Of a stretch of DNA of 64,000 nt, positions 29,995-43,700 are shown one piece after another. The translations under genes and the position numbers were made by a program. Under the pieces are notes generated by a model. The model was not told where the DNA came from and did no database searches. It was given only the letters and a program-made list of their open reading frames with translations. Position 1 is the stretch's first letter; every line of letters begins with the position of its first letter. Origin of the DNA: Legionella parisiensis (GTDB lineage Bacteria > Pseudomonadota > Gammaproteobacteria > Legionellales > Legionellaceae); NCBI RefSeq assembly GCF_001467945.1, contig NZ_LNYQ01000006.1, forward strand, positions 62,001-126,000, in the 5' to 3' direction.

Positions 29995-30027
29995 TATATT
30001 GTGCGATGCAACATAGAGGAGAGTATC

Positions 30028-30318
30028 ATGGCTCAACAAAATTTCGAAAAATGGACTGAAATGGCTAAAAAATTGCAAGAGCCTTTTCAAGCTATAGCTG
30101 AATTGAATGTGAAAACTTTGCAAAGTATGCATTATTTAAAGCCTGAAGAGATTGCGGGTATTAAAAAGCCTGAAGAACTGTTGGAGAAGCAAATTAGTCT
30201 AGCTGTTGAAAATGGTCATAAAGCTTTAGATTACATGCAAAAATCTTTTCAAATTCTTGAGAAAGCAATGTTAGGTTTTGTTCACGAAGCTAAAAAAGCA
30301 TCTGAAGTAAAGCATTAA
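30028..30318 (+). CDS. Small phasin (PHB granule-associated protein)
   Basis: The 96-aa helical protein begins MAQQNFEKWTEMAKKLQEPF and has a phasin pattern of amphipathic helices with QxxxFQ-type repeats (AIAELNVKTLQSMHY and ALDYMQKSFQILEKAM). Phasins coat PHB granules and control their size. The ATG at 30028 has a strong GAGGAGAG site; the frame is open upstream from a GTG at 30001 that lacks one. It follows phaR, has its own promoter, and ends in a strong terminator. The PHB polymerase gene phaC is not in the window. Confidence 0.85.
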   Translation: MAQQNFEKWTEMAKKLQEPFQAIAELNVKTLQSMHYLKPEEIAGIKKPEELLEKQISLAVENGHKALDYMQKSFQILEKAMLGFVHEAKKASEVKH

Positions 30319-30333
30319 TTTAACTATCTTTTT

Positions 30334-30375
30334 AAAAAAGCAGTTCCAGTATTTAAACCTGAACTGCTTTTTTTA
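30334..30375 (+). terminator. Intrinsic terminator of the phasin gene
   Basis: AAAAAAGCAGTTC pairs with GAACTGCTTTTTTT around a 14-base loop (30347–30360). The stem is 8 bp plus A–T extension and is followed by a run of seven T. It lies about 15 bases after the phasin stop. Confidence 0.85.
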
Positions 30376-30576
30376 TTTTCGCTTAAAACATGCCAAATCT
30401 TTGATAGGGTTAGCATTTACCACTGGTTTTAGGCATAGAATCACGCAAAAAGCATATAATTTTTTAAAGGATCAGGAATTGATTCTCTGAAAAGGTGGTA
30501 TAGTCATTAAGAAATAATTGCTTAATTTTAAGTCAATAATATATTTTTTTTTAATGTTATTTTCAAGGAGGGTATT

Positions 30577-30666
30577 ATGCAAGTCGGAGAAATCATGACA
30601 TCTAACCCCGAACTCTTACTCACCACTGCTATAATTACGGAAGCAGCTAAAAAATTGCGAGAATGA
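30577..30666 (+). pseudogene. Remnant of a CBS-domain protein
   Basis: A good ribosome binding site (AAGGAGGG) precedes an ATG that encodes only 29 residues, MQVGEIMTSNPELL and so on to KKLRE, then TGA. This is the standard opening of a CBS-domain protein (VGEIMTSNPELL..TAIITEAAKKL), which normally runs on for 100 residues or more. The rest is absent; instead a small hairpin and a TTTTA microsatellite follow. I read it as a truncated gene that kept its translation start. A genuinely short peptide is less likely. Confidence 0.65.
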
Positions 30667-30691
30667 AACTCTGGGTTTTTACCCTAAAAGC

Positions 30692-30733
30692 TTATTTTAT
30701 TTTATTTTATTTTATTTTATTTTATTTTATTTT
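30692..30733. repeat. TTTTA pentanucleotide microsatellite
   Basis: The unit TTTTA recurs without interruption from 30692 to 30733, with A at every fifth position from 30694 to 30729, about eight copies. It lies 26 bases after the truncated CBS frame and about 100 bases from the end of the LigD-type gene. Slipped-strand copy-number change is likely at such tracts. Confidence 0.9.
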
Positions 30734-30834
30734 GTTGAGGTACGATATGGATGAAATAAAATGGACTTAAAATTATACACATAGAGTTATGGAAGTTTCT
30801 CATTAATCAATATAGCTTGACTAAAAATGGTGTA

Positions 30835-31782
30835 TTAATCAAATAGAGCATTTAACTCTATATGCCGATTGTATCTATTGAAATTTTTCCAAGGGTTTTC
30901 TTTCTCTCCTAAACGCTGAAATATATTTTTCAAATGATAGAATTGGGGGTGTAAGGAACTATCATTCAGCTCTTCCCACTCCAGGGGCGTTGCGATAGGA
31001 GCTCCCTTTTTGGCACGTAAAGAATAGGGTGCTACTGCTGTCATAGCATAATCATTCCGTAAAAAATCAATAAATACTTTATTTCCACGTTTATTTTTTC
31101 GTTGCTCCAACGTCGTTATTTGGGGATGTTGTTGATGCAGCTTTTCTGCTATTTTTCTTGAAATTTCTTTAATTTTAGTAAATTTGCAGCGTGCTTTGAT
31201 GGGCAAATGTATATGTAGGCCCCGGGAACCGGAAGTTTTGACAAAGGTTGTAAGTTCAAAATCATCAAATAGTTTTTTTAAAGCAAGTGCTGTTTCACGC
31301 ACTTTTTCAAAATCATCATCCTGTGGATCTAAATCAAAAATAATTTGATCGGGTTTTTCGATTGAAGAAATAGTTGATAGGGAAATGTGCAGCTCCAAGG
31401 TATTTTGTCCTGCCAAATAGACCAAAGACTTTTTAGAATGGATGCCCACCATGCTCATTTCTGAATTTTCTTGTACGGTAGGTACCGTAAATTGTTTAAT
31501 ATAATCAGGAAAATAATGAGGGCGATGTTTGTTATAAAAACCCTCCTGATTAATACCATCAGGGTATCGTTTCAGACTGATCGGTCTATTTTTTACAAAA
31601 GGAAGAAGGTAATCTGCGATATTATAATAATACTCTGCGATTTCTTTCTTAGAAATCTTGTCATCTGGATAAAGTTGTTTATCTGGATGAGAGATGTCAA
31701 CACCAGTAATTTCCATAGGGTTTCTCCCAAGAGGTTTGTAATACCGATTATTTGTGTTCTTCTCGGTGTACTTCTTTTGCAT
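30835..31782 (-). CDS. Stand-alone LigD-type DNA polymerase/primase domain protein
   Basis: The 315-aa product is the polymerase domain found in bacterial NHEJ ligase D, a member of the archaeo-eukaryotic primase superfamily. It has the domain order TGVDISHPDKQLYP, KRYPDGINQEGFYNKH, the metal-binding IFDLDP (two Asp), SGSRGLHIHLP, and DFLRNDYAMTAVAPYSLRA with the third Asp. No ligase, phosphoesterase or Ku gene is nearby. The ATG at 31782 has AAAGGA at a good distance; ATG at 31716 (MEITGVDIS) is also well supported and gives 293 aa. Fill-in or ribonucleotide addition at breaks is the likely reaction. Confidence 0.88.
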   Translation of the reverse strand: MQKKYTEKNTNNRYYKPLGRNPMEITGVDISHPDKQLYPDDKISKKEIAEYYYNIADYLLPFVKNRPISLKRYPDGINQEGFYNKHRPHYFPDYIKQFTVPTVQENSEMSMVGIHSKKSLVYLAGQNTLELHISLSTISSIEKPDQIIFDLDPQDDDFEKVRETALALKKLFDDFELTTFVKTSGSRGLHIHLPIKARCKFTKIKEISRKIAEKLHQQHPQITTLEQRKNKRGNKVFIDFLRNDYAMTAVAPYSLRAKKGAPIATPLEWEELNDSSLHPQFYHLKNIFQRLGEKENPWKNFNRYNRHIELNALFD

Positions 31783-32274
31783 CCTTGTCCTTTCGAAGCA
31801 CCGAAAAAACAGGGATGTATTAATTTTCCAGGTTACGTTCGCATCGGTTTTTAAATAAATCATATTGCCAACAGCTGGCATTTTTGAATTACAGAGATAT
31901 TTTCCTTATTCTTTGCAGTTGTTCCTTGATGCTCTTTGGTTTTCCTAACCTGCTTGTTGCTGATCATTTTTTTAACTGTCTTTTGTTGGACATTATTTAA
32001 TCCTTGTTTTTGTGATATAGAATAAACTTTAACTCGACTCTTAGGCCAAGTTAAGGTCAGATAAATTATTTTCTTATAACTTAATTGATATTATGGACAA
32101 TAAAATCACAATATATGAAGTTATTGTTCTATTAATTAAATTTGAACAAAATAATCTAATCAATGGGTGTTTCTAGCGTTGGGAAAAAATACTTTTTTAG
32201 TTTTCTACAAGAGGATACAATGCCCCAAGATGAGAATGATTCTATGAATGAGATTACTAAAATGGGGGCATTGG
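31783..32274. other. Divergent intergenic region before lptF
   Basis: These 490 bases lie between the LigD-type gene (minus) and lptF (plus). On the minus strand a roughly 75-codon open stretch rich in Lys and Gln, with no start codon near its beginning, runs into the LigD-type start region. On the plus strand a 26-codon frame overlaps the lptF start. No RNA gene or consensus promoter was recognised. Confidence 0.5.
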
Positions 32275-32300
32275 GTGATCATTTTTCGTTATTTAGCTAA
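32220..32300 (+). CDS. Possible 26-residue upstream peptide overlapping lptF
   Basis: An ATG at 32220 with AGAGGA 5 bases before it opens a 26-codon frame (start MPQDENDSMNEITKMGALGD) that ends at 32300, inside lptF in another frame. Its ribosome binding site is better than that of either lptF start candidate, so lptF may be translated by coupling to it. No homolog is known to me. Confidence 0.35.
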   Translation: MPQDENDSMNEITKMGALGDHFSLFS

Positions 32301-33354
32301 AGAAGTGTTTATCACTTTGATTTCGCTAACCTCCATACTGGTGTTAATTTTTCTGAGTAATCAGCTAATTCAATATCTCAACAGGGCTGCCTCTGGAAGT
32401 ATTCCTGGTGTTATTATTATGAAGTTAATGATATTGGAATTGCCTACTTTACTGAGCTTCTTGGTTCCATTAGGTTTTTATATCGCCATGTTGCTTGCAT
32501 ATGGTCGTTTATATGCTGAAAGTGAGATGACAGTATTAGGGGCTTGTGGTTATGGACCAAATCAATTATTAAAACACAGTTTTATAATGGCTACAGGGGT
32601 AGCCATTATTGTTGCTGTGATAATGATTTGGGGAAGTCCTTTAATTTATATCGAACGAGCCAAGTTGTTACGTAGTACGGGAATACAAACTTTAGTACAA
32701 ACGATTATGCCTGGACGTTTCCATGCTATAAATGATGGTCAGGAAGTATTTTATGTCCAATCTATGAGTCGTGATCATACTAAGGCAAAGCAAATATTTC
32801 TCGCAAAAAAAAGCTCTGTAAATGAACGAACACGTTGGGATATATTATGGGCTGATCAAGCCTTTGCTGAAACGGATGCAAAAACAGGGGAGGACTACAT
32901 TATCTTGGAAAATGGTAAAGAATACCAAGGGACTCCTGGTCAGGCGGATTATCAAGTTGCAGAATTTGGCCAATATAAAGCACGGTTACCGCACCCCGTA
33001 ATTAAAATTTCTGATGATCTTCGCACAATAAGCACTGCAAGTTTATTACCTTATAATAATGAAAACGTTGCCAAGGCTGCTGAATTACAATGGCGTTTAT
33101 CGGTACCAATCATGGTATTTACTTTGACTTTAATTGCTGTTCCTTTGAGTCGTATTAACCCTCGTTCAGGAAAATATGCCAAGTTATTACCCGCAATTAT
33201 TGTTTATATTGTATATGCAAATTTATTGTTCATTGCGCGTGATGTAATGATTTCCGGAAAAACCCCACAATGGATAGGTTTATGGTGGGTACATCTGATT
33301 GTTATTAGTTTTGGATTATTTCTAAACTGGCGTAATCAGGTGAAGTTGGCATAA
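32275..33354 (+). CDS. lptF: LPS export permease LptF
   Basis: LptF and LptG form the membrane part of the LptB2FG ABC transporter, which pulls LPS from the inner membrane toward LptC and LptA. The protein has an N-terminal span (FRYLAKEVFITLISLTSIL), the LAYGRLYAESEMTVLGACG coupling-helix region, a periplasmic beta-jellyroll domain (about residues 130–260) and three C-terminal spans. The GTG at 32275 gives 359 aa and begins at the usual family position (VIIFRYL); an ATG at 32248 would add nine residues. It ends 2 bases before lptG. Confidence 0.93.
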   Translation: MIIFRYLAKEVFITLISLTSILVLIFLSNQLIQYLNRAASGSIPGVIIMKLMILELPTLLSFLVPLGFYIAMLLAYGRLYAESEMTVLGACGYGPNQLLKHSFIMATGVAIIVAVIMIWGSPLIYIERAKLLRSTGIQTLVQTIMPGRFHAINDGQEVFYVQSMSRDHTKAKQIFLAKKSSVNERTRWDILWADQAFAETDAKTGEDYIILENGKEYQGTPGQADYQVAEFGQYKARLPHPVIKISDDLRTISTASLLPYNNENVAKAAELQWRLSVPIMVFTLTLIAVPLSRINPRSGKYAKLLPAIIVYIVYANLLFIARDVMISGKTPQWIGLWWVHLIVISFGLFLNWRNQVKLA

Positions 33355-33356
33355 GC

Positions 33357-34421
33357 ATGAAAATATTAGATCGCTACATTGCAAAAACAGTTCTTAGCTC
33401 TATTGGGTTAGTCACATTAATGTTAGTAGGGCTGCAAATTTTTATTTTATTTGTCGGTGAAATAGGTGATTTAGGACGAGCTGATTATGGCATTGTTCAG
33501 GCAATTTTCTTTATTTTGTTACAAATGCCCTATCAAATCTATTTATTTTTTCCCATGGCAAGTCTTCTTGGCTGTTTGATTGGGCTTGGGATTTTGGCCA
33601 ATCATAGCGAATTGGTCATAATGCGTGCTACAGGAATGTCTATTGGGCAAGTCACTTGGGCAGTTTTAAAGGCATCGGTATTACTTATCGTATTGGTTAC
33701 TGTACTGGGGGAAACTTTAGTACCCTATTTATCCCATTATTCCAATGACTACAAGACTGCTGCAGTCAGTGGAGGGCAAACTTTAAGAACCTCACAGGGG
33801 TCTTGGATGCGCTATGGAAATGATTTTATTTCTGTCGGACTCATACAGCCCAAAAATGTCCTCAATAACATTTATCAATTTCGTTTTGATGAGCATCATC
33901 ATTTAAAAATGTCTCGTTTTATTTATGAGGCGAGATATACCCCTACAGGTTGGGTTGCTTATGGGATACAACAAACAGATTTTGATGCAGATCAAACCAA
34001 AGTTCAGACTTTTACTTCCCTTCCTTGGGACGTGTACGTAAAACCAAAAATCTTAATGATTAGCAGTGTTGAACCTGATGAAATGACCTTAAAAGAATTG
34101 AATCGCTACATTCGGGAGCAGAAACACAATCATCAGAATGTGCATAATTATCAGTTTGCTTTTTTACAACGGATTATTCAACCGTTTACGACCATGGTAA
34201 TGATGATCCTCGCCATCCCGTTTATTTTTGGTCCATTGCGCTCAACGACTATGGGGTCGAAATTGTTGGTGGGGGCCGCAGTGGGATTTAGCTTTCATAT
34301 CTTGAGCCGCTTTTTTGGTCCGCTCAGCACGGTATTTCAGTTGCCGCCTGAATTAGCTGCTTTGGGCCCAACTTTTATTTTCGCACTATTGGGCTTGTAT
34401 TTGATGAGAAGAGTGAGATAA
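33357..34421 (+). CDS. lptG: LPS export permease LptG
   Basis: LptG is the partner of LptF in LPS export. The 354-aa protein starts MKILDRYIAKTVLSSIGLV, a typical family opening, and has the HSELVIMRATGMSIGQV coupling helix, a periplasmic beta domain and three terminal spans ending in LGLYLMRRVR. It follows lptF by 2 bases and ends at a symmetrical terminator. Confidence 0.94.
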   Translation: MKILDRYIAKTVLSSIGLVTLMLVGLQIFILFVGEIGDLGRADYGIVQAIFFILLQMPYQIYLFFPMASLLGCLIGLGILANHSELVIMRATGMSIGQVTWAVLKASVLLIVLVTVLGETLVPYLSHYSNDYKTAAVSGGQTLRTSQGSWMRYGNDFISVGLIQPKNVLNNIYQFRFDEHHHLKMSRFIYEARYTPTGWVAYGIQQTDFDADQTKVQTFTSLPWDVYVKPKILMISSVEPDEMTLKELNRYIREQKHNHQNVHNYQFAFLQRIIQPFTTMVMMILAIPFIFGPLRSTTMGSKLLVGAAVGFSFHILSRFFGPLSTVFQLPPELAALGPTFIFALLGLYLMRRVR

Positions 34422-34423
34422 AC

Positions 34424-34440
34424 GTGTAAGTTACTTACAC
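34424..34440. terminator. Terminator shared by lptG and a convergent small frame
   Basis: GTGTAAGT and ACTTACAC are 8-bp perfect complements around one central T, followed by TCTTTTGTTTT. It begins 2 bases after the lptG stop and overlaps the stop of the small minus-strand frame at 34431, so it can act in both directions. Confidence 0.65.
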
Positions 34441-34652
34441 TCTTTTGTTTTCTCACTACGGATCTCTAACTTTCCTGAATATGTTAATTTCTTATTTCTT
34501 TTACTCATTTCGCAGAGTACTAAAAGGGTCGATTGATCATAGGGTAAGGTTCTGTTAATGGAACTCGTCAAATTCTCTTTAGCGCCACTGCCAGTTAAAT
34601 CGATGGAAGTAGCTATGTGGGTATCAGAAGTTTGGTCAAGTTTTAAAGCCAT
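34431..34652 (-). CDS. Small unknown protein next to the RtcB/radical SAM cassette
   Basis: The 73-aa frame (start MALKLDQTSDTHIATSIDLT) lies in the gap between lptG and the cassette and is divergent from the 121-aa gene. Its composition looks like real protein, with many Thr, Ser, Lys and Glu and two Cys, but no family is recognised and no clear ribosome binding site precedes it. Its position makes it worth testing as a partner or substrate of the cassette, though it may be a chance frame. Confidence 0.4.
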   Translation of the reverse strand: MALKLDQTSDTHIATSIDLTGSGAKENLTSSINRTLPYDQSTLLVLCEMSKRNKKLTYSGKLEIRSEKTKECK

Positions 34653-34716
34653 ACTTTGTATAAATATTATATGGTGATGCTTTTCTATAGTTTTTTTTGG
34701 TTCTTTAAAAATTGTC

Positions 34717-34722
34717 TATACT
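34717..34722 (+). promoter_or_regulatory. Possible −10 box for the RtcB/radical SAM cassette
   Basis: TATACT lies 48 bases before the 121-aa gene. The region where a −35 box is expected is T-rich without a clear hexamer, so the promoter is either weak or activator-dependent. Confidence 0.3.
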
Positions 34723-34769
34723 TAATATCAGTAACAAACAATAAAAGTTCACTTTGTAGGAGACTACTT

Positions 34770-35135
34770 ATGACTAGCCACATTGATGATACACCCTCTG
34801 AACCTACTTATACTTCCACTTCATACAAAGTGCAGTACCAAAAAGCTAAAGAAACCCCTGAACAAAAACTAATTAGAGAATTAGAGACCCAACTGAGTGA
34901 AGTCCAAGGTAAAAAAGGTGAAAGGCATGAACACAAAGCTAATGTAATTAAGGCTGCTCTTGATTTTCTTAAAGAACAAGACCCTATGGAACGGCAGGAA
35001 AAACGTAGGGAATTAACTGAGGCAATTCGCGACAATCCTAAATATGACAAGGCCTTATTTAGTAGCAAAACAAAAGATTTAATTGATCAGGTGGTAAATG
35101 CACATCCAGATAATTCACAGTCATATAATCTTTAA
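34770..35135 (+). CDS. Small charged helical protein, first gene of the RtcB/radical SAM cassette
   Basis: The 121-aa protein starts MTSHIDDTPSEPTYTSTSYK, with TAGGAG before the ATG at 34770; the frame is open further upstream but without a good start. After a Thr/Ser/Tyr-rich head (residues 1–25) it is strongly helical and charged (Lys, Glu, Arg, Gln) from about 28 to 110 and ends PDNSQSYNL. It has no Cys, no signal peptide and no membrane span. It is followed by the RtcB-like gene after 12 bases, so it is probably the operon's first gene. It could be a substrate, a chaperone or an RNA-binding partner of the two enzymes; none of these is proven. Confidence 0.75.
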   Translation: MTSHIDDTPSEPTYTSTSYKVQYQKAKETPEQKLIRELETQLSEVQGKKGERHEHKANVIKAALDFLKEQDPMERQEKRRELTEAIRDNPKYDKALFSSKTKDLIDQVVNAHPDNSQSYNL

Positions 35136-35147
35136 TATTATAAGACA

Positions 35148-36431
35148 ATGAACAGTGCATTAGTTAGGACGTATGCTGCGTCAAACCTGAAAAATTATTT
35201 TTATAGTACCCAGGTAATGAAAAAGGTTTCAGAGGTCTTGAGTTTTTTAATGCCTAATCATGAGTTACATTTATTTCCTGAGGCTACGATCAAAACGAAT
35301 AAACTACCCAATGGCCTGCTCATAAAAAGTGAGTTGGGTAAAACTATGCTTATGCCAGCTATTTTACGTGATCCAGGATGTGGTTTTTTGCTTTTTCACA
35401 TTAAAAATATTAATGCTGATTCTTCAATAGATGTTGCTCACTCCGTCTTAAAATTTTGTAGAAAACTAGAAAAAACAAGGATCCAATTAGATAATAGCTG
35501 GCATGATATTCTTTGTTGTGGAATTAATCATTTAAATAAGGCTAATGAATATCCTCATAATTATTTTTCCATTGATCTTAAGTTTCTTTATTTGGATATC
35601 GAGTTGGGCCGGCTCAATAGAGATATCAATAATATAACTAATACTCTTGAGTTAAAGACAGTGCAACCCTTGTCTATGACTAGAAGACACAATGAGTTGT
35701 TTGGTTTTCTTCACACTGGCAGTGAATATTTTCCAGAATACATCCATAAGCATTGGTCTAGAGTTGCAGCGGATTACAGCTATCGAAATGGATTATCAAC
35801 GCTTAATGCAATGAACCAAGGTATGTATGGTTTTCCTGATTCGATAGAGGAGGCTTATGAATACCAACAAGAATTAAAAGCGGCAATGAATTACTGCGTT
35901 TTTAAACGCTATTGGATTTTTAATCAATTAAAAAGATACCTCCATGAACAGCATAAAGATGTTGAAATCACTGTTCTGAGCGATAATTGTCATGCTGGTT
36001 TATTCGAAATGAAAAAAAATGATAAAAAGTACTTGTTGCAATCTAGGGGAGTGCAACTCCTTATTAATGGACAAACTCCCTATTTAATGGCCGGACATAA
36101 AGAATCTGAGTCTTTTCTATTGAAAGGATATTCGGGTAAAGAACTGGCTTATCTTGGTCATGGAACCAGTTACTCAATTGATCGCAACTTTAAATACGCT
36201 GAGTTATTGGGGCGTCAAAAAGTAGCGCAATCTTTAAATCAATTAAAATATATAATGACTAATACCAAACTAGAGGAGGATAAATGTTTAGCTTATACCT
36301 ATAACATTCAAAAACAAAAAGAGTATTTAGAACAGTCTTCTTTAAATTTTAGTCCATTATATCCACTGGTTAATTATCAAGGCCCCTATTTACGTCGAGT
36401 ACTCAATCATGACAATAAATCACAACACTGA
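35148..36431 (+). CDS. Divergent RtcB-family protein
   Basis: RtcB is a Mn/GTP-dependent RNA ligase that joins 3'-phosphate ends through a guanylated His. This 427-aa protein follows the family order. DPGCGF supplies Asp75 and Cys78, in place of the usual DIGCGM. A His-rich segment has His181 and His189 (LHTGS, like HSGSR). His282 is in SDNCHAGLFE, followed by QSRGVQLL in place of HRKGAT. PYLMAGHKESESFLLKG stands where RtcB has PGSMGTxSYVLxG, and LGHGTSYSIDR keeps the candidate guanylated His338 but not the GAGR that normally follows. The C-terminus (SPLYPLVNYQG) also matches. It overlaps a radical SAM gene by 23 bases. Ligase activity is uncertain. Confidence 0.82.
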   Translation: MNSALVRTYAASNLKNYFYSTQVMKKVSEVLSFLMPNHELHLFPEATIKTNKLPNGLLIKSELGKTMLMPAILRDPGCGFLLFHIKNINADSSIDVAHSVLKFCRKLEKTRIQLDNSWHDILCCGINHLNKANEYPHNYFSIDLKFLYLDIELGRLNRDINNITNTLELKTVQPLSMTRRHNELFGFLHTGSEYFPEYIHKHWSRVAADYSYRNGLSTLNAMNQGMYGFPDSIEEAYEYQQELKAAMNYCVFKRYWIFNQLKRYLHEQHKDVEITVLSDNCHAGLFEMKKNDKKYLLQSRGVQLLINGQTPYLMAGHKESESFLLKGYSGKELAYLGHGTSYSIDRNFKYAELLGRQKVAQSLNQLKYIMTNTKLEEDKCLAYTYNIQKQKEYLEQSSLNFSPLYPLVNYQGPYLRRVLNHDNKSQH

Positions 36432-37497
36432 TGAAATACTGCCATTTTCATTTGGCAATTTGTCTACAAGTAATTATCTGTGGTTAACCTTGACCAATTT
36501 ATGCAACCTTCATTGTAAATATTGCTTTAATTATATTTCGCATTGCAATGAACACATGTCTGCTGATCTTTCCGTCAACATTGTTAAGTCTCAACTCTTG
36601 TCTCTTGATAAAAATAAGTCAGAAAAATTCTTTGTGACCTATTTTGGCGGGGAACCTACACTCAATCATGCAGCCTTAATGAGTTCAGTTCATTTTCTTA
36701 TTGATAATGATGTTAATTGCCGCCAATGTTTAATGACCAATGGTGTTTTCAATTCACGAACTTTTACAGACTTAATAAATAAAGATATTGAATTTCAAGT
36801 CTCATTTGATGGGAAGAATAATAACTTACGGTTCAATAAAAATTTAACCAAAGCAGTGTTTACTGAAACTTTGGAGACCATTAAAAAACTCACAAGCAAT
36901 AAGGAATCCGTTTGCATTCGCGCTACCATTCATCAAGATAACGTAAAAAATTTACCTAGCTTAGTACAATTGTGCGATGCTTATGGTGTTCGAAGATTAC
37001 AAATTGCTCCGATTTGTAATTTTGGAGATGCTGAAGCAAATGCAGTCCAACAACCTGATCTAAATGAATATTTCGAATTATTTTGCAAAGCATTTGAACT
37101 GTCTTTGCAATACAATGTGCACATTGATCTTCATGGAGAAAAATATTTTAATCATATTAAAAATCAAAAAATGAAAATTCCCTTTGTTTGGCTTCCTGAT
37201 GGGTATGTGGCGATGAGTATTACCTATGCGAGCTCGAGAATAAAAGGCGCAGAAAAAATCATTATTGGCAAGTTCAATGAAGTTGAGAATAGGATAGATT
37301 TAAACAATTCGCTTATTGATCAAATGAAACATAATTTTCTTAAAAATAGAAAAAAGTATTGCCATGATTGTCCTATTCGTGATCTATGTTGCGGCAATAT
37401 ACATTTCACCCCCTTTGCAACGGATACCTTTAATCCAAAACGCGATCGTTATTTTTGTGAGTTAGCTATAAGAACGGTGAAGGAGTTTAGGGAGTGA
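36409..37497 (+). CDS. Radical SAM enzyme with a cysteine-rich C-terminus
   Basis: The 362-aa protein has the radical SAM cluster motif CNLHCKYC (Cys32, Cys36, Cys39) and the SAM-binding FGGEPT (residues 79–84). A C-terminal Cys group, CHDCPIRDLCCGN (Cys318, 321, 327, 328) plus Cys350, resembles the second half of a SPASM domain, which holds auxiliary Fe-S clusters in peptide- and protein-modifying enzymes. The first SPASM Cys is missing: PDGYVAMS stands where a Cys usually follows the PDG turn. Its ATG lies inside the RtcB-like gene (23-base overlap), so the two are translated together. A modification of protein, peptide or RNA is plausible; the substrate is unknown. Confidence 0.88.
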   Translation: MTINHNTDEILPFSFGNLSTSNYLWLTLTNLCNLHCKYCFNYISHCNEHMSADLSVNIVKSQLLSLDKNKSEKFFVTYFGGEPTLNHAALMSSVHFLIDNDVNCRQCLMTNGVFNSRTFTDLINKDIEFQVSFDGKNNNLRFNKNLTKAVFTETLETIKKLTSNKESVCIRATIHQDNVKNLPSLVQLCDAYGVRRLQIAPICNFGDAEANAVQQPDLNEYFELFCKAFELSLQYNVHIDLHGEKYFNHIKNQKMKIPFVWLPDGYVAMSITYASSRIKGAEKIIIGKFNEVENRIDLNNSLIDQMKHNFLKNRKKYCHDCPIRDLCCGNIHFTPFATDTFNPKRDRYFCELAIRTVKEFRE

Positions 37498-37647
37498 ACT
37501 TTGAATGAGCTGGTCTTATCACCAGCAAAGAAACTCCTTGGGAATGCTCTCATAGCTCCCTGAATGTAAGGCGATAGAAACATCTCATTTCCTTTGTACA
37601 TTTTTTCATTTAAAATGGCTTGTCTTTGGAGGAAAAAGCTATCACTG

Positions 37648-38823
37648 TTATACTACTTGTCCTGCGGCCCATCCCGATGACCAAGCCCATTGAAAATTAT
37701 ATCCTCCTAACCAACCGGTAACATCCAAGGCTTCGCCAATGAAATAAAGCCCGGGGATATCCTGAGCTTCCATAGTTTTGGAAGAAATTGCATGGCAATC
37801 TATACCACCAATAGTTACTTCAGCAGTACGATATCCTTCAGTCCCGTTAGGTTTTACCAACCAGGAGTTAAGCTGTTTTGCTACAGATTCCAAATGATGA
37901 TTGGAGAGTTTGGCAAGTTTCTTTTCAGCAATTTCTGGTGAAATAAAGAGCTCGATAACGCGTTTAGGTAAATGTGTGGACAAGATAGAGTTTAATTGTT
38001 TTTGTGGTTTTTCAGTTCGCGCGCTTTTTAAGTAATTCAAGAGATTGATTTCGGGCAATAAATTGATGCAGATACTTTCTCCTGCATGCCAATAAGAGGA
38101 TAATTGTAAAATTGCAGGGCCGCTCAAACCGCGATGAGTAAATAAGGTATTTTCACGAAATTCAATACGCGCATTTTTAACTAAACTATCAATACCAATC
38201 CCCGAAAGCAGGGAGATTCTTTCTTTTTCCAATACGTCCAGAGTAAGAGGAACCAATCCCGCTCGAGTAGGCCATACATTAATACCAAATTGCTCTGCTA
38301 CTTTGTAGGCAAATGGGCTAGCCCCCATGGTAGGTATGGATAAACCTCCACTGGCAACAACTAAAGATTGACAGTGAAATATCCCCCTGGTGGTTTGCAG
38401 TTTAAAGCTTTGTAATTTTTGAATTTTTTCTACACAGGTATTTAGGTGGACCATGACCCCTGCGGCATCGCACTCTTTTAGCAACATTTCTACAATATCT
38501 TTCGATTTATTATCGCAAAATAATTGTCCTAATGTTTTTTCATGAAAGGGAATTTTATGTTTTTTAACAAGCTCAATAAAATCCCATTGAGTATAGCGAG
38601 TTAAAGCAGATTTAAAAAAATGAGGGTTATGGGAGTTGTATTTTTCAGGTTCAATATAATAATTCGTAAAATTACAACGCCCCCCTCCTGACATTAAAAT
38701 TTTTTTACCTGCTTTATTTGCATGATCCAATACAAGGACTTTACGGTGACGTTTACCCGCTTCAATGGCACACATTAAACCTGCAGCACCTGCACCTATA
38801 ATAATGACATCAACTGCTTCCAT
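37648..38823 (-). CDS. HI0933-type flavoprotein (YhiN-like FAD-dependent oxidoreductase)
   Basis: The roughly 391-aa protein starts with the FAD-binding Rossmann motif VIIIGAGAAGLMCA, then AGKKILMSGGGRCNFTN, a signature of the HI0933/BaiN family. It also has FTHRGLSGPAILQLSS and ends with GLYFIGEALDVTGWLGGYN, QWAWSSGWAAG. Family members are FAD enzymes of unknown physiological substrate, some acting on bile acids or other hydrophobic compounds. The ATG at 38823 matches the family start; ATGs at 38853 and 38886 would add residues without clear ribosome binding sites. It is convergent with the cassette and divergent from the next gene. Confidence 0.88.
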   Translation of the reverse strand: MEAVDVIIIGAGAAGLMCAIEAGKRHRKVLVLDHANKAGKKILMSGGGRCNFTNYYIEPEKYNSHNPHFFKSALTRYTQWDFIELVKKHKIPFHEKTLGQLFCDNKSKDIVEMLLKECDAAGVMVHLNTCVEKIQKLQSFKLQTTRGIFHCQSLVVASGGLSIPTMGASPFAYKVAEQFGINVWPTRAGLVPLTLDVLEKERISLLSGIGIDSLVKNARIEFRENTLFTHRGLSGPAILQLSSYWHAGESICINLLPEINLLNYLKSARTEKPQKQLNSILSTHLPKRVIELFISPEIAEKKLAKLSNHHLESVAKQLNSWLVKPNGTEGYRTAEVTIGGIDCHAISSKTMEAQDIPGLYFIGEALDVTGWLGGYNFQWAWSSGWAAGQVV

Positions 38824-38945
38824 ATTGGATTGACTTGTGTTAAATCTAAACATGTGCAAGGGTAACATGTGATGTGCGTGATTCAAAGAGTTGGTCTTGA
38901 GTACAAAGGGATTTTTGATGCACTTATTTATTATAAATACATTTT

Positions 38946-40133
38946 ATGTATGTTCTTAAACGTCTTTTAGCAATAGCATTAGGTGTTATTGTATTGCCAA
39001 TACGTATCTTGGCATACAATGCCCTTTATGAAGCGATTGCATTTCTTTTGGGAGTTGTTGGTGTAATCAGCTTACCTGTTTACTTGGCATCTGTTTTTAA
39101 TGATCATGGCGTTTCCACTGCGAAGAATTTTCTACTGATAACGGTGGTTATTTTTCCACTTGTAGTGACAGCAATCGCAATTGGTTTTGCATTTACAACC
39201 GCTTTTCTAGTTTACAATACTGTAATCAACATGCTTGAATCGTTCTGGCTAGGTTTTAGGAGTGGATTACTGTATGAGATGGATGGTTTTTGGAATGCAT
39301 TAGCTTCGCAACATACTTTAACGCAAGACATCGATACACATATTAGGGCTTTTCAGTCCGGTGTGCATCCCGATGAGTTAATCGAGGATGTTGATTTTGA
39401 TGGCTTCCAACGAATAAGAGGGGAATTGCAAGATGTTGTTGTAGTAAAGGAGGATTTGGAAGTTCCGGATTTAGAAAGTAAAGACCTCCGGGAATTTTAT
39501 ACATTATTAAATGACAGTGAATTAGAAAAAATCGATACACTCATAAAGGAATTGACCAATCTCCAAGATCTTTTATCTCTAGAACAAAAACGACAGTTGA
39601 ATGCTTTAAAAACTTTGTATACTCAACATAACGATTTATCAAAAAAACTGGAGGATGTACGAACTGCTTTGGTGGAAAATGATAAAAGCCGAATTAAGGA
39701 TGAAATGGTAGCCTATAATGAGGTGGAAACCCCGATATTATTGGTGAAACAATATTTAAAAGAGGGAAAATGGCATAATGTCCCTGCAAATAGCTACGTT
39801 ACTGATAAAGAAAGTTTATTACATTGGTTAAAGCAAAATCCCAAACATCCTCTTAATAAAGATCTTCTGAAAAAACCAGAGTATTATAACAAAATGGAAA
39901 CAAGATATATTTGGTATGAACTGACCCTAGAGGATTGCTCATCCCAAGAATTAGCTGAGGCTGCTGCAAAAATGAATGATTTGGTGCTCGCTTTAATTCC
40001 TCTATTGCCTCTGCAAAAAATAAATCGGGGACTAGGCACTGTACCTCAATCATTTTTTGGCCCAGGGGTCAATAATTCTGAGTCACCTGAAGTAAAGTTG
40101 GATAATACCTTTACGGGCCAGACTTTGGGATGA
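38946..40133 (+). CDS. Unknown membrane protein with a coiled-coil cytoplasmic domain
   Basis: The 395-aa product has three hydrophobic stretches in its first 110 residues (about 5–20, 25–45 and 58–92), then a long charged region with coiled-coil character (about residues 185–245, e.g. LTNLQDLLSLEQKRQLNALK). It ends in a polar tail with PGVNNSESPEVKLDNTFTGQ. No family is recognised. The shape, membrane hairpins followed by coiled coil, is common among Legionella effectors that sit in host membranes, but nothing here proves secretion. Confidence 0.65.
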   Translation: MYVLKRLLAIALGVIVLPIRILAYNALYEAIAFLLGVVGVISLPVYLASVFNDHGVSTAKNFLLITVVIFPLVVTAIAIGFAFTTAFLVYNTVINMLESFWLGFRSGLLYEMDGFWNALASQHTLTQDIDTHIRAFQSGVHPDELIEDVDFDGFQRIRGELQDVVVVKEDLEVPDLESKDLREFYTLLNDSELEKIDTLIKELTNLQDLLSLEQKRQLNALKTLYTQHNDLSKKLEDVRTALVENDKSRIKDEMVAYNEVETPILLVKQYLKEGKWHNVPANSYVTDKESLLHWLKQNPKHPLNKDLLKKPEYYNKMETRYIWYELTLEDCSSQELAEAAAKMNDLVLALIPLLPLQKINRGLGTVPQSFFGPGVNNSESPEVKLDNTFTGQTLG

Positions 40134-40258
40134 TTCTAAAAGTAATCTTTATACAAGAATAAATTGAACTTTATGGTTCTTTTTTTTTTTCATAATTATG
40201 GTGCTAATTTAAGCTTATACTGTAAGTATTAAAGTGATCTATTTTAAGGACTATCATC

Positions 40259-40531
40259 ATGGATGAACTGGATATTTTGCAATTATTTTATGATGAGATG
40301 AAAAATCGCAGTGCAACTCGAGATCAAGTTTTTTTAAATATGGAGGAAGAGGCAGCAGCAATGCTTTCTCAAAAATCAGGACAATCTATATCCGTTGTCG
40401 ATCTACAAAAATTAACGGATATCTGTATCGCTAATCAATGGCTGGAGCGAACGACGGCTGATCCTAATTATAAATATTTATCATTAACTGAAGCAGGACT
40501 ACAAGTTATTATAGCGAATCAATACAGTTAA
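40259..40531 (+). CDS. Small protein with a winged-helix-like pattern
   Basis: The 90-aa frame starts MDELDILQLFYDEMKNRSAT and contains the pattern DLQKLTDICIANQWLERTT, then YKYLSLTEAGLQVI. A helix–turn–helix followed by a wing with LTEAG is common in winged-helix DNA-binding proteins such as MarR- and PadR-like regulators, but the protein is short and the match is general. It stands alone ahead of carB. Confidence 0.6.
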   Translation: MDELDILQLFYDEMKNRSATRDQVFLNMEEEAAAMLSQKSGQSISVVDLQKLTDICIANQWLERTTADPNYKYLSLTEAGLQVIIANQYS

Positions 40532-40769
40532 CCTGGAAAAAGCGGTTAAGTTCTACTGTGCAAACTAAGAACATCGAATCTACTAATTTTTTTCACTGTA
40601 CAGGTGACTACCGCTTTCACAAAAAATTCAAAATAATCCCGTATCTTCAGTAATTTCAGCTGGCTCCCTGCGAACTAAACAGCTTTTTCTATGTTAATTG
40701 CATATCAAGGGTATAAACTTTAAGCAAAAGTAGGTAAAATGTATCATTTTATTCTTTTTTGTTGTCAAT

Positions 40770-43700
40770 ATGCCAAAACGAACCGATATAAAATCCATTC
40801 TTATCCTTGGAGCAGGTCCTATTATAATAGGACAAGCTTGTGAATTTGATTACTCTGGAACCCAAGCAGTACGTGCCTTAAAGGAAGAAGGTTATCGTGT
40901 GATCTTGGTCAACTCCAATCCAGCTACCATTATGACGGATCCAGAACTTGCAGATGCAACTTATGTTGAACCGGTATCCTGGAAAGAAGTAGCACGTATT
41001 ATTGAAATTGAACGTCCAGATGCGCTCTTGCCGACTATGGGTGGACAGACAGCACTTAACTGTGCCCTGGATTTAGTACGTGAGGGAGTTTTAGCAAAGT
41101 ATAATGTAGAAATGATCGGCGCAACACGAGAGGCGATTGATCGCGCTGAAGATAGAGAAAAATTTCGTCAATTGATGATTAAAATTGGCTTGGATATGCC
41201 GCGTTCGGCGATTGCCCATAGCTTGGAAGAGGCAATCCAGGTCCAGGCTCAATTGGGTTATCCGGCAATTATTCGTCCCTCTTTTACTATGGGAGGCAGC
41301 GGTGGTGGTATTGCATATAATCGTGAAGAATTTGAAGAAATTTGTATGCGTGGGTTAGAGTTATCACCAACTCATGAGTTGCTGATTGATGAATCAGTAC
41401 TCGGTTGGAAAGAGTTCGAAATGGAAGTAGTGCGTGATAAAAATGATAATTGCATTATTGTCTGTACTATTGAAAACTTTGATCCTATGGGTGTTCACAC
41501 TGGTGATTCCATTACTGTGGCTCCTGCGCAAACACTTACTGATAAAGAGTTTCAACGTATGCGGGATGCCGCCATTAAAGTATTACGGGCAGTAGGGGTT
41601 GATACTGGGGGTTCAAACGTACAATTTGCTGTTAATCCAGAAGATGGGCGAATGCTTGTGGTTGAAATGAACCCAAGAGTTTCTCGAAGCTCTGCTTTGG
41701 CCTCCAAGGCAACTGGCTTTCCTATTGCAAAAGTGGCTGCAAAACTCGCTGTTGGCTACACGCTCGATGAGCTAAAAAATGAAATTACTGGTGGTAAGAC
41801 TCCGGCTTCGTTTGAACCAAGCATTGATTATATAGTCACTAAAGTGCCGCGATTTAATTTTGATAAATTCCCTCAAACTTCAGATATCCTGACGACACAA
41901 ATGAAGTCAGTCGGTGAGGTGATGGCAATTGGATCCAATTTCCAGGAGTCCTTACAAAAAGCAATACGAGGTTTAGAGATAGGGCGTTGTGGTTTGCATC
42001 CTTTATTCAAGAAAAACGATTTGGCACGTTTAAGAGGCCATTTGCGAGCACCAACTCCGGATAGGCTTTGGTATATCGCTGATGCTTTTAGAAACAATAT
42101 CACCCTTGAAGAAATTCATCAGGAAAGTCGTGTTGACCCTTGGTTTTTGGCGCAAGTTGAGGAGCTGGTTGCTCTGGAACGTTCTGTGGCCGGGAAAAAA
42201 TTGGCAGATGTCGATGCGCTTACTTTACGCCTTCTGAAGCGACGTGGTTTTGCCGATGCTTATTTGGCTACACTTTGGTCGTGCTCTGAAGAGGAGGTAC
42301 GCAAGCAACGAAAAGAACTAGGGATTGTTCCTGTTTACAAACGCATTGATTCCTGTGCAGGTGAGTTCCCCAGTGATACGGCTTATATGTATTCATGTTA
42401 TGAAACCAGTTGTGAAGCTCGCCCTGATACCGGTAAGAAAAAAATTATGATTCTTGGTGGAGGGCCTAATCGAATTGGTCAGGGAATTGAATTTGATTAT
42501 TGTTGTGTGCATGCAGCGATGGCGCTTCGGAGCGCAGGTTGTCAGACTATTATGGTTAATTGCAACCCTGAAACAGTTTCTACCGATTTTGATACTTCCG
42601 ATCGCCTGTATTTTGAACCTGTGACTCTAGAAGATGTTTTGGGGATTGTAGATGTAGAAAAACCAGAGGGAGTTATTGTCCATTACGGTGGACAAACCCC
42701 TTTAAAATTAGCACGAGCGTTAGAAGCAAATGGTGTTAAAATAATAGGGACCTCTCCAGATGCAATTGATAGGGCAGAAGACAGAGATCGGTTTCAAAAA
42801 TTAGTCACAGAATTGAAATTACATCAACCTGATAATGGTACTGTGCGTAGTGAGGCAGAAGCCATCGCCTTAGCAAACAAGATCGGTTATCCGTTAGTGG
42901 TAAGACCTTCATATGTTCTTGGAGGGCGCGCTATGGAAGTTGTCTATCAAGAAGATGATTTGCGCCATTATTTATCGCATGCAGTTGCTGTATCCAATGA
43001 TTCTCCCGTATTGTTGGATAAATTTTTAAATGATGCAATTGAAGTAGATATTGACGCAGTTTGTGATGGCAAAGAGGTGTTGATTGGTGCGGTAATGGAG
43101 CACATAGAACAAGCCGGTATTCATTCAGGCGATTCGGCCTGTACTTTACCCCCATTTAGTCTCAGTGTTGTGGTACAACAGGATTTAATGGAGCAAATGC
43201 GGCAAATGGCATTGAAGTTAGGAGTAGTTGGTTTGATTAATGCGCAATTTGCTATTCAAGCGGATGACATTTATGTTCTGGAGGTAAACCCAAGAGCCTC
43301 ACGGACTGTTCCTTTTGTTTCCAAAGCGACAGGTTTACCTTTGGCCAAAATAGCAGCTCTTTGCAAACTGGGGATTAGCTTAAAAGAACAAGGTTTAAGC
43401 CAAAACCACCATATGCCATCCTTTTATTCAATTAAGCTCCCCGTTTTCCCTTTTATCAAATTTTCTGGGGTAGACTCTATTCTTGGCCCTGAAATGAAAT
43501 CTACAGGGGAAGTAATGGGTATTGCCAGACGTTTTGGACAAGCTTATGCTAAGGCACAATTGGGAGCAGGTTCTAATATACCCAAGCGTCGTCGTGCTTT
43601 TGTTTCCGTTAGGGATGCCGATAAAACGCGAGTGGGTGAAATTGCCAAGCGATTGATTGAATTAGGTTTTGAAATCATTGCAACACGTGGCACCGCTTTG

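What the first reader, a model, noticed from the sequence alone, without database searches (positions are those of the whole stretch)
34770..37497. RtcB homolog and radical SAM enzyme fused in one translationally coupled cassette
A small charged protein, an RtcB-family protein and a radical SAM enzyme lie in a row with a 12-base gap and then a 23-base overlap, so they should be made together. I know of no described pathway that pairs RtcB with a cysteine-rich radical SAM enzyme. One reading is an RNA repair or RNA modification unit; another is a peptide-modifying (RiPP-like) unit in which the 121-aa protein is the substrate. The pairing is seen in the sequence; both functions are inference.
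Basis: partly seen in the sequence, partly recalled or inferred. Interest (0 to 1): 0.85.

Follow-up and report, generated by a model that had tools for sequence, protein, structure and literature searches.

The report
Mobile RtcB-like and radical SAM cassette
Three adjacent Legionella genes, a small protein, a strongly altered relative of the RNA ligase RtcB and a radical SAM enzyme, appear to move between species as one unit and may carry out a protein-modification chemistry that I have not found described.

Summary
In detail: 121-aa gene, 12-base gap, RtcB-family gene, 23-base overlap, radical SAM gene; separate ORFs, not a fusion. The same trio, same order, is in 4 of 143 Legionellales genomes searched; both enzyme profiles hit exactly those four. 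The copies lie in different places (one a L. lytica plasmid); here the unit fills a variable slot between lptG and a flavoprotein gene. Both enzyme trees reject the CarB tree and agree with each other; the small protein's tree does not decide. The RtcB-like protein keeps metal-A ligands and the histidine nucleophile but lacks His203, the GTLGGGN loop and Lys480. The radical SAM enzyme resembles SPASM maturases but keeps only Aux II cysteines. The small protein ends in an undescribed Legionellaceae domain, C-terminal in 22 of 23 other proteins examined. Best reading: a mobile protein-maturation cassette in which an RtcB-fold and a radical SAM enzyme act on the small protein. The chemistry is inferred. 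Four paper searches (open-licence library) listed no such pair.

The parts
34770..35135 (+). Small protein, 121 aa (first gene of the cassette)
   Evidence: relatives of 118, 116 and 117 aa in the same position in three other genomes, 41-46% identical; annotated as a CDS in L. lytica
34770..34805 (+). First 12 residues of the small protein; identical in L. erythra and similar in the other two; candidate recognition or modification segment (inference)
   Evidence: 22 of 23 non-cassette profile hits start at profile position 20 or later, the one that starts at 1 (L035) lacks this peptide
34857..35099 (+). Legionellaceae C-terminal domain (about residues 30-110)
   Evidence: 59 of 143 genomes with a 27-row profile; ends within 51 residues of the C terminus in 22 of 23 non-cassette proteins
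35148..36431 (+). RtcB-fold protein, 427 aa, divergent
   Evidence: Pfam PF01139 above cut-off for the window protein, matched at E up to 1 in 4 of 4 members; the 13 PDB matches at E<=0.001 are RtcB chains, a tRNA ligase complex chain, PH1602 and TTHA1785 (the last two RtcB by recall) (low-confidence model)
35370..35381 (+). D75 to C78 (RDPGCG), aligned with Asp95 and Cys98 of P. horikoshii RtcB
   Evidence: residue roles from passages of PMC10630183 and PMC8668186
35712..35714 (+). H189 (HTGSE), aligned with His234 (metal A)
   Evidence: invariant in four
35991..35993 (+). H282 (CHAGLF), aligned with His329 (metal A)
   Evidence: invariant in four
36159..36161 (+). H338 (GHGTSY), aligned with the guanylylated nucleophile His404 (HGAGR)
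   Evidence: invariant in four
36409..37497 (+). Radical SAM enzyme, 362 aa
   Evidence: Pfam PF04055 above cut-off; best NCBIfam model PapB 73.9 bits, far under its cut-off 340; Foldseek best: 5why (CteB by recall), TigE, SkfB, anSME
36502..36525 (+). CX3CX2C (C32, C36, C39): SAM-binding 4Fe-4S cluster motif
   Evidence: invariant in four
37360..37458 (+). C318-X2-C321-X5-C327-X22-C350: spacing of the Aux II site of SPASM enzymes; no Aux I cysteine set
   Evidence: PqqE Aux II and PqqE/anSME Aux I residues from passages of PMC5715301
34421..37645 (.). Stretch without blastn homology to the same slot in four relatives: flank homology stops at 34414-34421 and resumes at 37646-37648
   Evidence: slot gap 3232 bases here, under 1000 bases in 20 of 39 genomes

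Best explanation
A horizontally moving three-gene protein-maturation cassette of Legionellaceae. Shown: the three genes are a conserved, tightly packed unit in four genomes; the two enzymes share a history that is not that of CarB; the RtcB-fold protein keeps the metal-A ligands and the histidine nucleophile but has lost other residues of an RNA ligase; the radical SAM enzyme most resembles SPASM peptide/protein maturases. Inferred: the small protein is the substrate or carrier; its conserved N-terminal segment is recognised and modified, while its C-terminal domain is a module used by many Legionellaceae proteins. The radical SAM enzyme makes a carbon-centred modification on it, and the RtcB-like enzyme, through a nucleotidyl-histidine or metal-bound phosphate step, adds, removes or activates a phosphate or nucleotide group on the same protein. 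RtcB would thus have been recruited from RNA sealing to another phosphoryl chemistry.
For: Trio in 4 of 143 Legionellales genomes, both enzymes in exactly the same four, small gene first in 4 of 4. RtcB-like and radical SAM prefer the same four-taxon tree; the CarB tree is rejected for RtcB-like (p-AU 0.0016) and radical SAM (p-AU 0.040, p-KH 0.010) (1000 resamplings, which the program itself calls few for the AU test). The five NCBIfam models with the lowest E-values among members, each matched by 4 of 4, are maturases: PapB, CbpB, tungsten-cofactor oxidoreductase maturase, DynA, YhhB. Fold matches: 5why, TigE, SkfB, anSME. RtcB-like: metal-A ligands, Asp95 and His404 equivalents invariant in four; His203, GTLGGGN loop and Lys480 equivalents lost.
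Against: Only four copies known. No substrate is shown. The small protein has no Cys and no Trp, and its main domain occurs in many genomes without the enzymes (against 21, 22), so it could be a partner rather than a substrate. The small protein's own tree does not support the enzymes' shared topology (p-AU 0.032 against it, though p-KH 0.128 and p-SH 0.205). Radical SAM profiles of small-molecule enzymes (MoaA, NirJ, viperin) match too, more weakly. Both structure models are of low confidence.
Confidence: 0.4

Rival explanations
1. RNA repair or RNA modification unit: the RtcB-like enzyme still seals or trims RNA ends, the radical SAM enzyme modifies the same RNA, the small protein is an RNA-binding or regulatory subunit.
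For: RtcB family membership by Pfam and fold; nucleophile His and metal-A ligands kept.
Against: His203, the GTLGGGN loop and Lys480 equivalents are missing; NCBIfam RtcB-family equivalog PRK09588 21 bits against a cut-off of 407; no RtcA, archease or release factor recognised among the neighbouring ORFs by inspection; a canonical RtcB with archease exists elsewhere in the same genome; the best radical SAM profiles are maturases.
Confidence: 0.2
2. Effector-type unit: the small protein is of the host-interaction kind, its C-terminal domain a shared export or partner-binding module, and the two enzymes make or activate it before release. It can be a sub-case of the best explanation.
For: The domain ends within 51 residues of the C terminus in 22 of 23 non-cassette proteins of very different size; a stand-alone relative lies beside icmF in G005.
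Against: Export was not tested; nine of the larger proteins scanned have no informative Pfam match; a C-terminal position alone does not prove a signal; the domain was sought by profile in Legionellales only.
Confidence: 0.17
3. Anti-phage or conflict module, acting like viperins (radical SAM making modified nucleotides) with the RtcB-like protein as nucleotide-handling partner.
For: Patchy and mobile (4 of 143), slot between core genes whose length varies; prokaryotic viperin profiles match at 43 bits; viperin structures in the fold list.
Against: Maturases match better (PapB 73.9 bits; 5why rank 1); no PADLOC match for the RtcB-like protein and only a weak one for the small protein (GajB, 17 bits).
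Confidence: 0.1
4. Genes without joint function that happen to ride together.
For: Mobile context: an IS66 transposase piece about 0.7 kb beyond the small gene in G132, a plasmid in L. lytica.
Against: Same order, near-zero spacing and intact ORFs in four separate surroundings, shared enzyme tree; neither enzyme found without the other in 143 genomes at the thresholds used.
Confidence: 0.06

Closest known systems
RtcB 3'-phosphate RNA ligase (Pfam PF01139; P. horikoshii and human structures)
   Same: Fold (low-confidence model); Asp95, Cys98, His234, His329 and His404 equivalents; HxGS and HG motifs.
   Different: His203 replaced (N165 or T166 by alignment), GTLGGGN loop absent, Arg after HSGS replaced by Glu, GSMG replaced by GHKES/GQKES, final Lys replaced by Gln (3 of 4) or His (1 of 4) and followed by an extra tail; 18% identical to the genome's own canonical RtcB in a default alignment that misplaces one motif.
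RtcB2-PrfH operon (passages of PMC9223846)
   Same: A second RtcB-family gene in an operon with an unrelated partner.
   Different: No release factor seen; the partners are a radical SAM enzyme and a Legionellaceae-type small protein; PRK09588 score 21 against cut-off 407, my use of that model as the RtcB2 type being recall.
SPASM radical SAM peptide maturases (PapB, CteB, SkfB, anSME)
   Same: Radical SAM core, C-terminal cysteine-bearing extension, small gene next door, best profile and fold matches.
   Different: Only Aux II-type cysteines are present; no Aux I set; far below the curated cut-offs shown; partner enzyme is an RtcB homologue.
Prokaryotic viperins
   Same: Radical SAM core match.
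   Different: Weaker than the maturases; extra C-terminal cluster motif; no test of the nucleotide site made.

Membership tests
RtcB RNA ligase | Pfam PF01139 gathering score | tested here: met
   window protein 35.2 bits against 27, partial (residues 180-368). At E up to 1, 4 of 4 members match; their own scores were not shown
RtcB RNA ligase | RtcB fold | tested here: met
   the 13 PDB matches at E<=0.001 are RtcB or taken as RtcB; model pLDDT only 52.5. By sequence alone no RtcB match in the PDB, and hhalign against three canonical RtcBs gave 3% probability, E 0.015
RtcB RNA ligase | Metal A ligands Cys98, His234, His329 | tested here: met
   C78, H189, H282 invariant in four
RtcB RNA ligase | Nucleophile His404 | tested here: met
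   H338 invariant in four
RtcB RNA ligase | Metal B ligand His203 and the GTLGGGN stretch | tested here: not met
   local-pair mode: TNTLEL in place of GTLGGGNHFIEL; the other mode places the gap differently and also aligns no His
RtcB RNA ligase | C-terminal Lys480 (human Lys504) that binds guanine | tested here: not met
   Gln in three, His in one
RtcB RNA ligase | RNA ligation with GTP | not testable with these tools
   needs an assay
RtcB2-PrfH operon | Adjacent peptide release factor gene | tested here: not met
   ORFs and annotation by inspection; no profile search for PrfH was run
Radical SAM superfamily | CX3CX2C and Radical_SAM profile | tested here: met
SPASM domain | Seven-cysteine motif binding Aux I and Aux II | tested here: not met
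   Only C318, C321, C327, C350 (Aux II spacing); no conserved Cys between residues 203 and 318
PapB-type peptide maturase | NCBIfam NF047865 cut-off | tested here: not met
   73.9 bits against 340
RiPP system | Small gene beside the maturase | tested here: met
   (the small gene lies next to the RtcB-like gene, two genes from the radical SAM gene's start)
RiPP system | Leader/core layout with a modifiable core | tested here: inconclusive
   N-terminal 12 residues conserved, but no Cys and a C-terminal shared domain
RiPP system | Leader-binding RRE domain | not tested
   no RRE model was searched on its own; the Pfam scan of the three proteins listed none

The most novel reading that the evidence does not exclude
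An RtcB-fold enzyme has been turned into a protein-tailoring enzyme: using a histidine-bound nucleotide it joins a nucleotide or an RNA 3'-phosphate to a hydroxyl of the small protein, whose side chain the radical SAM enzyme prepares, giving a protein-nucleotide or protein-RNA conjugate carried by a Legionellaceae C-terminal module.
Probability: 0.1. Interest if true: 0.92.

Novelty: new variant of a known kind. Interest (0 to 1): 0.62.

Why it matters
RtcB is known as an RNA ligase. A clade that keeps its nucleophile and the ligands of one metal site while losing other RNA-ligase features, and that is wired to a radical SAM enzyme, would show that this fold was recruited to new chemistry. The unit is small, self-contained and apparently mobile, so its chemistry is directly testable. 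The small protein also exposes an undescribed domain shared by many Legionellaceae proteins.

Tried and rejected
Single-sequence scan of genome contigs with the RtcB-like protein: 27 stretches matched a pattern, none a relative. With the four-row alignment: 75 stretches, 2 kept, L. erythra and a Planctomycetota stretch of 33 residues that I rejected as chance after reading its ORFs. That scan did not return L. lytica or G132, so its silence elsewhere is weak evidence. Viral contigs with the RtcB-like alignment: nothing; with the radical SAM alignment: one short radical SAM protein in a different setting. Phages with the RtcB-like protein: no match; phages were not searched with the other two. 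Plasmids: only L. lytica for RtcB-like; for radical SAM L. lytica plus three distant ones at 23-27% identity, whose neighbourhoods I did not examine. Class (369 genomes) and phylum (398) with the RtcB-like profile and class (229) with the radical SAM profile at E<=1e-15: only the window's own genome. These are samples that overlap, and the RtcB-like profile did not pick up canonical RtcBs in genomes that have one (for example G036, G043, G046), so diverged cousins elsewhere are not excluded. Rfam on 33000-39500 at gathering score: nothing. Promoter scan: 9 sites against 14.4 in shuffles, not used. GC of the cassette (0.33-0.34) is a little below its flanks but within the range of the stretch 30000-42000, so not used as evidence of transfer. 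Default MAFFT with one canonical RtcB misplaced the HxGS motif and was replaced by the two modes. PADLOC and PHROGs gave no defence assignment. Pfam for nine proteins carrying the C-terminal domain: no informative match. PDB search with the domain: helical designs and coiled coils, best E 0.0014, not used.

Counts: 39 genomes with an lptG hit were used; 31 have the flavoprotein gene convergent on the same contig at 8-8018 bases, 3 have the two genes far apart, 5 have them on different contigs or lack a hit. The 23 non-cassette proteins are the 27 rows less the four cassette copies; L036, where the domain is internal, is the one exception.
Full report
Observation. The window holds three ORFs on the + strand: 34770-35135 (121 aa), 35148-36431 (427 aa) and 36409-37497 (362 aa). 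The spacing is as reported: a gap of 12 bases, then an overlap of 23. The second is an RtcB-family protein (PF01139, 35.2 bits, cut-off 27, residues 180-368) and the third a radical SAM enzyme (PF04055, 37.6 bits, cut-off 29.5). They are not fused.

Conservation. Among 57 relatives, the own genome included, the RtcB-like protein is found in 2. In the 143 genomes that the order search returned, its profile finds 4, and the radical SAM profile at E<=1e-15 finds the same 4: the window's genome G000, G022, G126 and G132. In 4 of 4 the small gene comes first, then RtcB-like, then radical SAM, with junctions between a 12-base gap and a 23-base overlap. Identities to the window proteins are 41-46% (small), 40-47% (RtcB-like) and 57-60% (radical SAM). 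No further copy was found in samples of 369 class and 398 phylum genomes (both include the window's own), nor, with the RtcB-like protein, in phages, plasmids other than the L. lytica one, or viral contigs. The genome collection of 84,980 species gave L. erythra only; that scan works from short peptide patterns and did not return L. lytica or G132.

Mobility. lptG (PF03739) and an HI0933-like flavoprotein gene (PF03486) are convergent on one contig in 31 of 39 genus genomes with lptG. The gap is 3232 bases in the window's genome, under 1000 in 20 of 39, and 8018 at most. DNA homology to four relatives stops at 34414-34421 and resumes at 37646-37648, so the cassette with about 350 upstream and 150 downstream bases fills the slot. 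In two relatives with long gaps, G108 and G028, the slot holds other ORFs. In G132 an IS66 transposase piece lies about 0.7 kb beyond the small gene. In L. lytica the cassette is on a 373-kb plasmid. For the four taxa, CarB supports (window, lytica),(erythra, G132), in line with the genus labels, and rejects the other two trees. RtcB-like and radical SAM both support (window, erythra),(lytica, G132) and reject the CarB tree (p-AU 0.0016 and 0.040; 1000 resamplings, which the program calls few for this test). The small protein cannot decide: its best tree is the third one, the CarB tree is not rejected, and it mildly disfavours the enzymes' tree (p-AU 0.032, p-KH 0.128, p-SH 0.205). The two enzymes have therefore most likely moved together; for the small gene this rests on position and order.

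RtcB-like protein. A low-confidence AlphaFold2 model (pLDDT 52.5, four sequences) matches, at E<=0.001 and probability 1.00, 13 PDB chains: nine titled RtcB, one chain of a tRNA ligase complex, PH1602 and two of TTHA1785, the last three RtcB by recall. Sequence-only comparison is weak: no PDB hit by phmmer, no RtcB hit by profile, hhalign 3% probability though in register at HxGS and HG. From passages of PMC10630183 and PMC8668186: metal A is held by Cys98, His234, His329, metal B by Asp95, Cys98, His203, the nucleophile is His404, and in human RTCB guanine is bound by Glu230, Ser409 and Lys504. In one search the cassette proteins have D75, C78, H189, H282 and H338 at the positions of Asp95, Cys98, His234, His329 and His404, invariant in four. 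His203 is replaced (N165 or T166, depending on where the gap is set), GTLGGGN is absent, the final Lys is Gln or His. A Glu (E168) is kept where the guanine-binding Glu would be, in one of the two alignment modes. Mapping P. horikoshii numbers onto our canonical rows by motif, and Lys480 onto human Lys504, is my reading. The same genome has a canonical RtcB next to an archease gene on another contig.

Radical SAM enzyme. CX3CX2C is present. Ten Cys are invariant in four: 32, 36, 39, 104, 189, 203, 318, 321, 327, 350. The last four have the spacing of the Aux II site (PqqE: C310, C313, D319, C341; passages of PMC5715301; the anSME Aux II numbers that I compared are recalled). Aux I cysteines are missing. 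The five NCBIfam models with the lowest E-values, each matched by 4 of 4 members, are PapB, CbpB, a tungsten-cofactor oxidoreductase maturase, DynA and YhhB (25 of 56 families shown); for the window protein the best, PapB, is far below its cut-off. The model (pLDDT 63) is closest to 5why (CteB by recall), TigE, SkfB and anSME, with viperin and NifB among the next. I read it as a SPASM-like enzyme with one auxiliary cluster, most like enzymes that act on peptides or proteins.

Small protein. Its first 12 residues are identical in the window and L. erythra and similar in the other two. Residues 30-110 belong to a domain that the four-row profile finds in 25 of 143 genomes and a 27-row profile in 59 of 143 at E<=1e-4 (the 27 rows come from these genomes, so part of that number is built in). 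In 22 of 23 non-cassette hits the domain ends within 51 residues of the C terminus, in open frames from 127 to 1887 codons; in one (L036) it is internal. Pfam gave only weak matches below cut-off (best PriC, E 0.0015, one member). In G005 a stand-alone relative lies beside the 3' end of icmF (named by likeness to the window's IcmF).

Explanation. A protein-maturation cassette fits best: a SPASM-like radical SAM enzyme, an RtcB-fold enzyme that keeps phosphate-handling parts but not other RNA-ligase parts, and a small protein as substrate or carrier. The steps on the substrate are inference. An RNA unit, an effector-type unit and a viperin-like unit are kept as rivals. Searches of the open-licence paper library for RtcB with radical SAM and operon (5 papers), with RiPP, with radical SAM and gene cluster, and for Legionella with radical SAM, peptide and biosynthetic gene cluster (5 held, 4 listed) listed nothing that describes such a pair; of these papers I saw the listings and the starts of abstracts only. 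The survey of RNA repair systems by Burroughs and Aravind (2016) is not held and may contain relevant neighbourhoods.

Noticed in passing
L022-L044; window 34857-35099: A probably helical domain at the C terminus of many otherwise different Legionellaceae proteins, without a Pfam match above cut-off in the proteins scanned; it may be an export or partner-binding module.
   Followed up: partly
window 34421-37645 and the same slot in G108 and G028: The stretch between lptG and the HI0933-like flavoprotein gene is a variable slot (8 to 8018 bases in the 31 of 39 genomes where both lie convergent on one contig), with other ORFs in G108 and G028.
   Followed up: partly
L085 2075-2443 (G005): A stand-alone 122-aa member of the same domain family lies beside icmF; profile hits about 8-14 kb from lptG in six further genomes (G007, G017, G018, G022, G032, G034) may mark the same place. 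The window has no such gene between 45712 and icmF (45813-48734).
   Followed up: partly
window 30835-31881 (-): A LigD primase-polymerase domain protein (PF21686, 290.7 bits); partners for end joining were not sought.
   Followed up: no
L084 593-2425 (G000 contig C13): 610-aa protein with the C-terminal domain and no Pfam match at E<=1e-4; several other hits have open frames of about 606-626 codons and may be its relatives.
   Followed up: no
window radical SAM C104, C189, C203 (36409-37497): Three further invariant cysteines (and C199 in three of four) inside the radical SAM core, outside the usual cluster motifs; possible extra metal or disulfide site.
   Followed up: no
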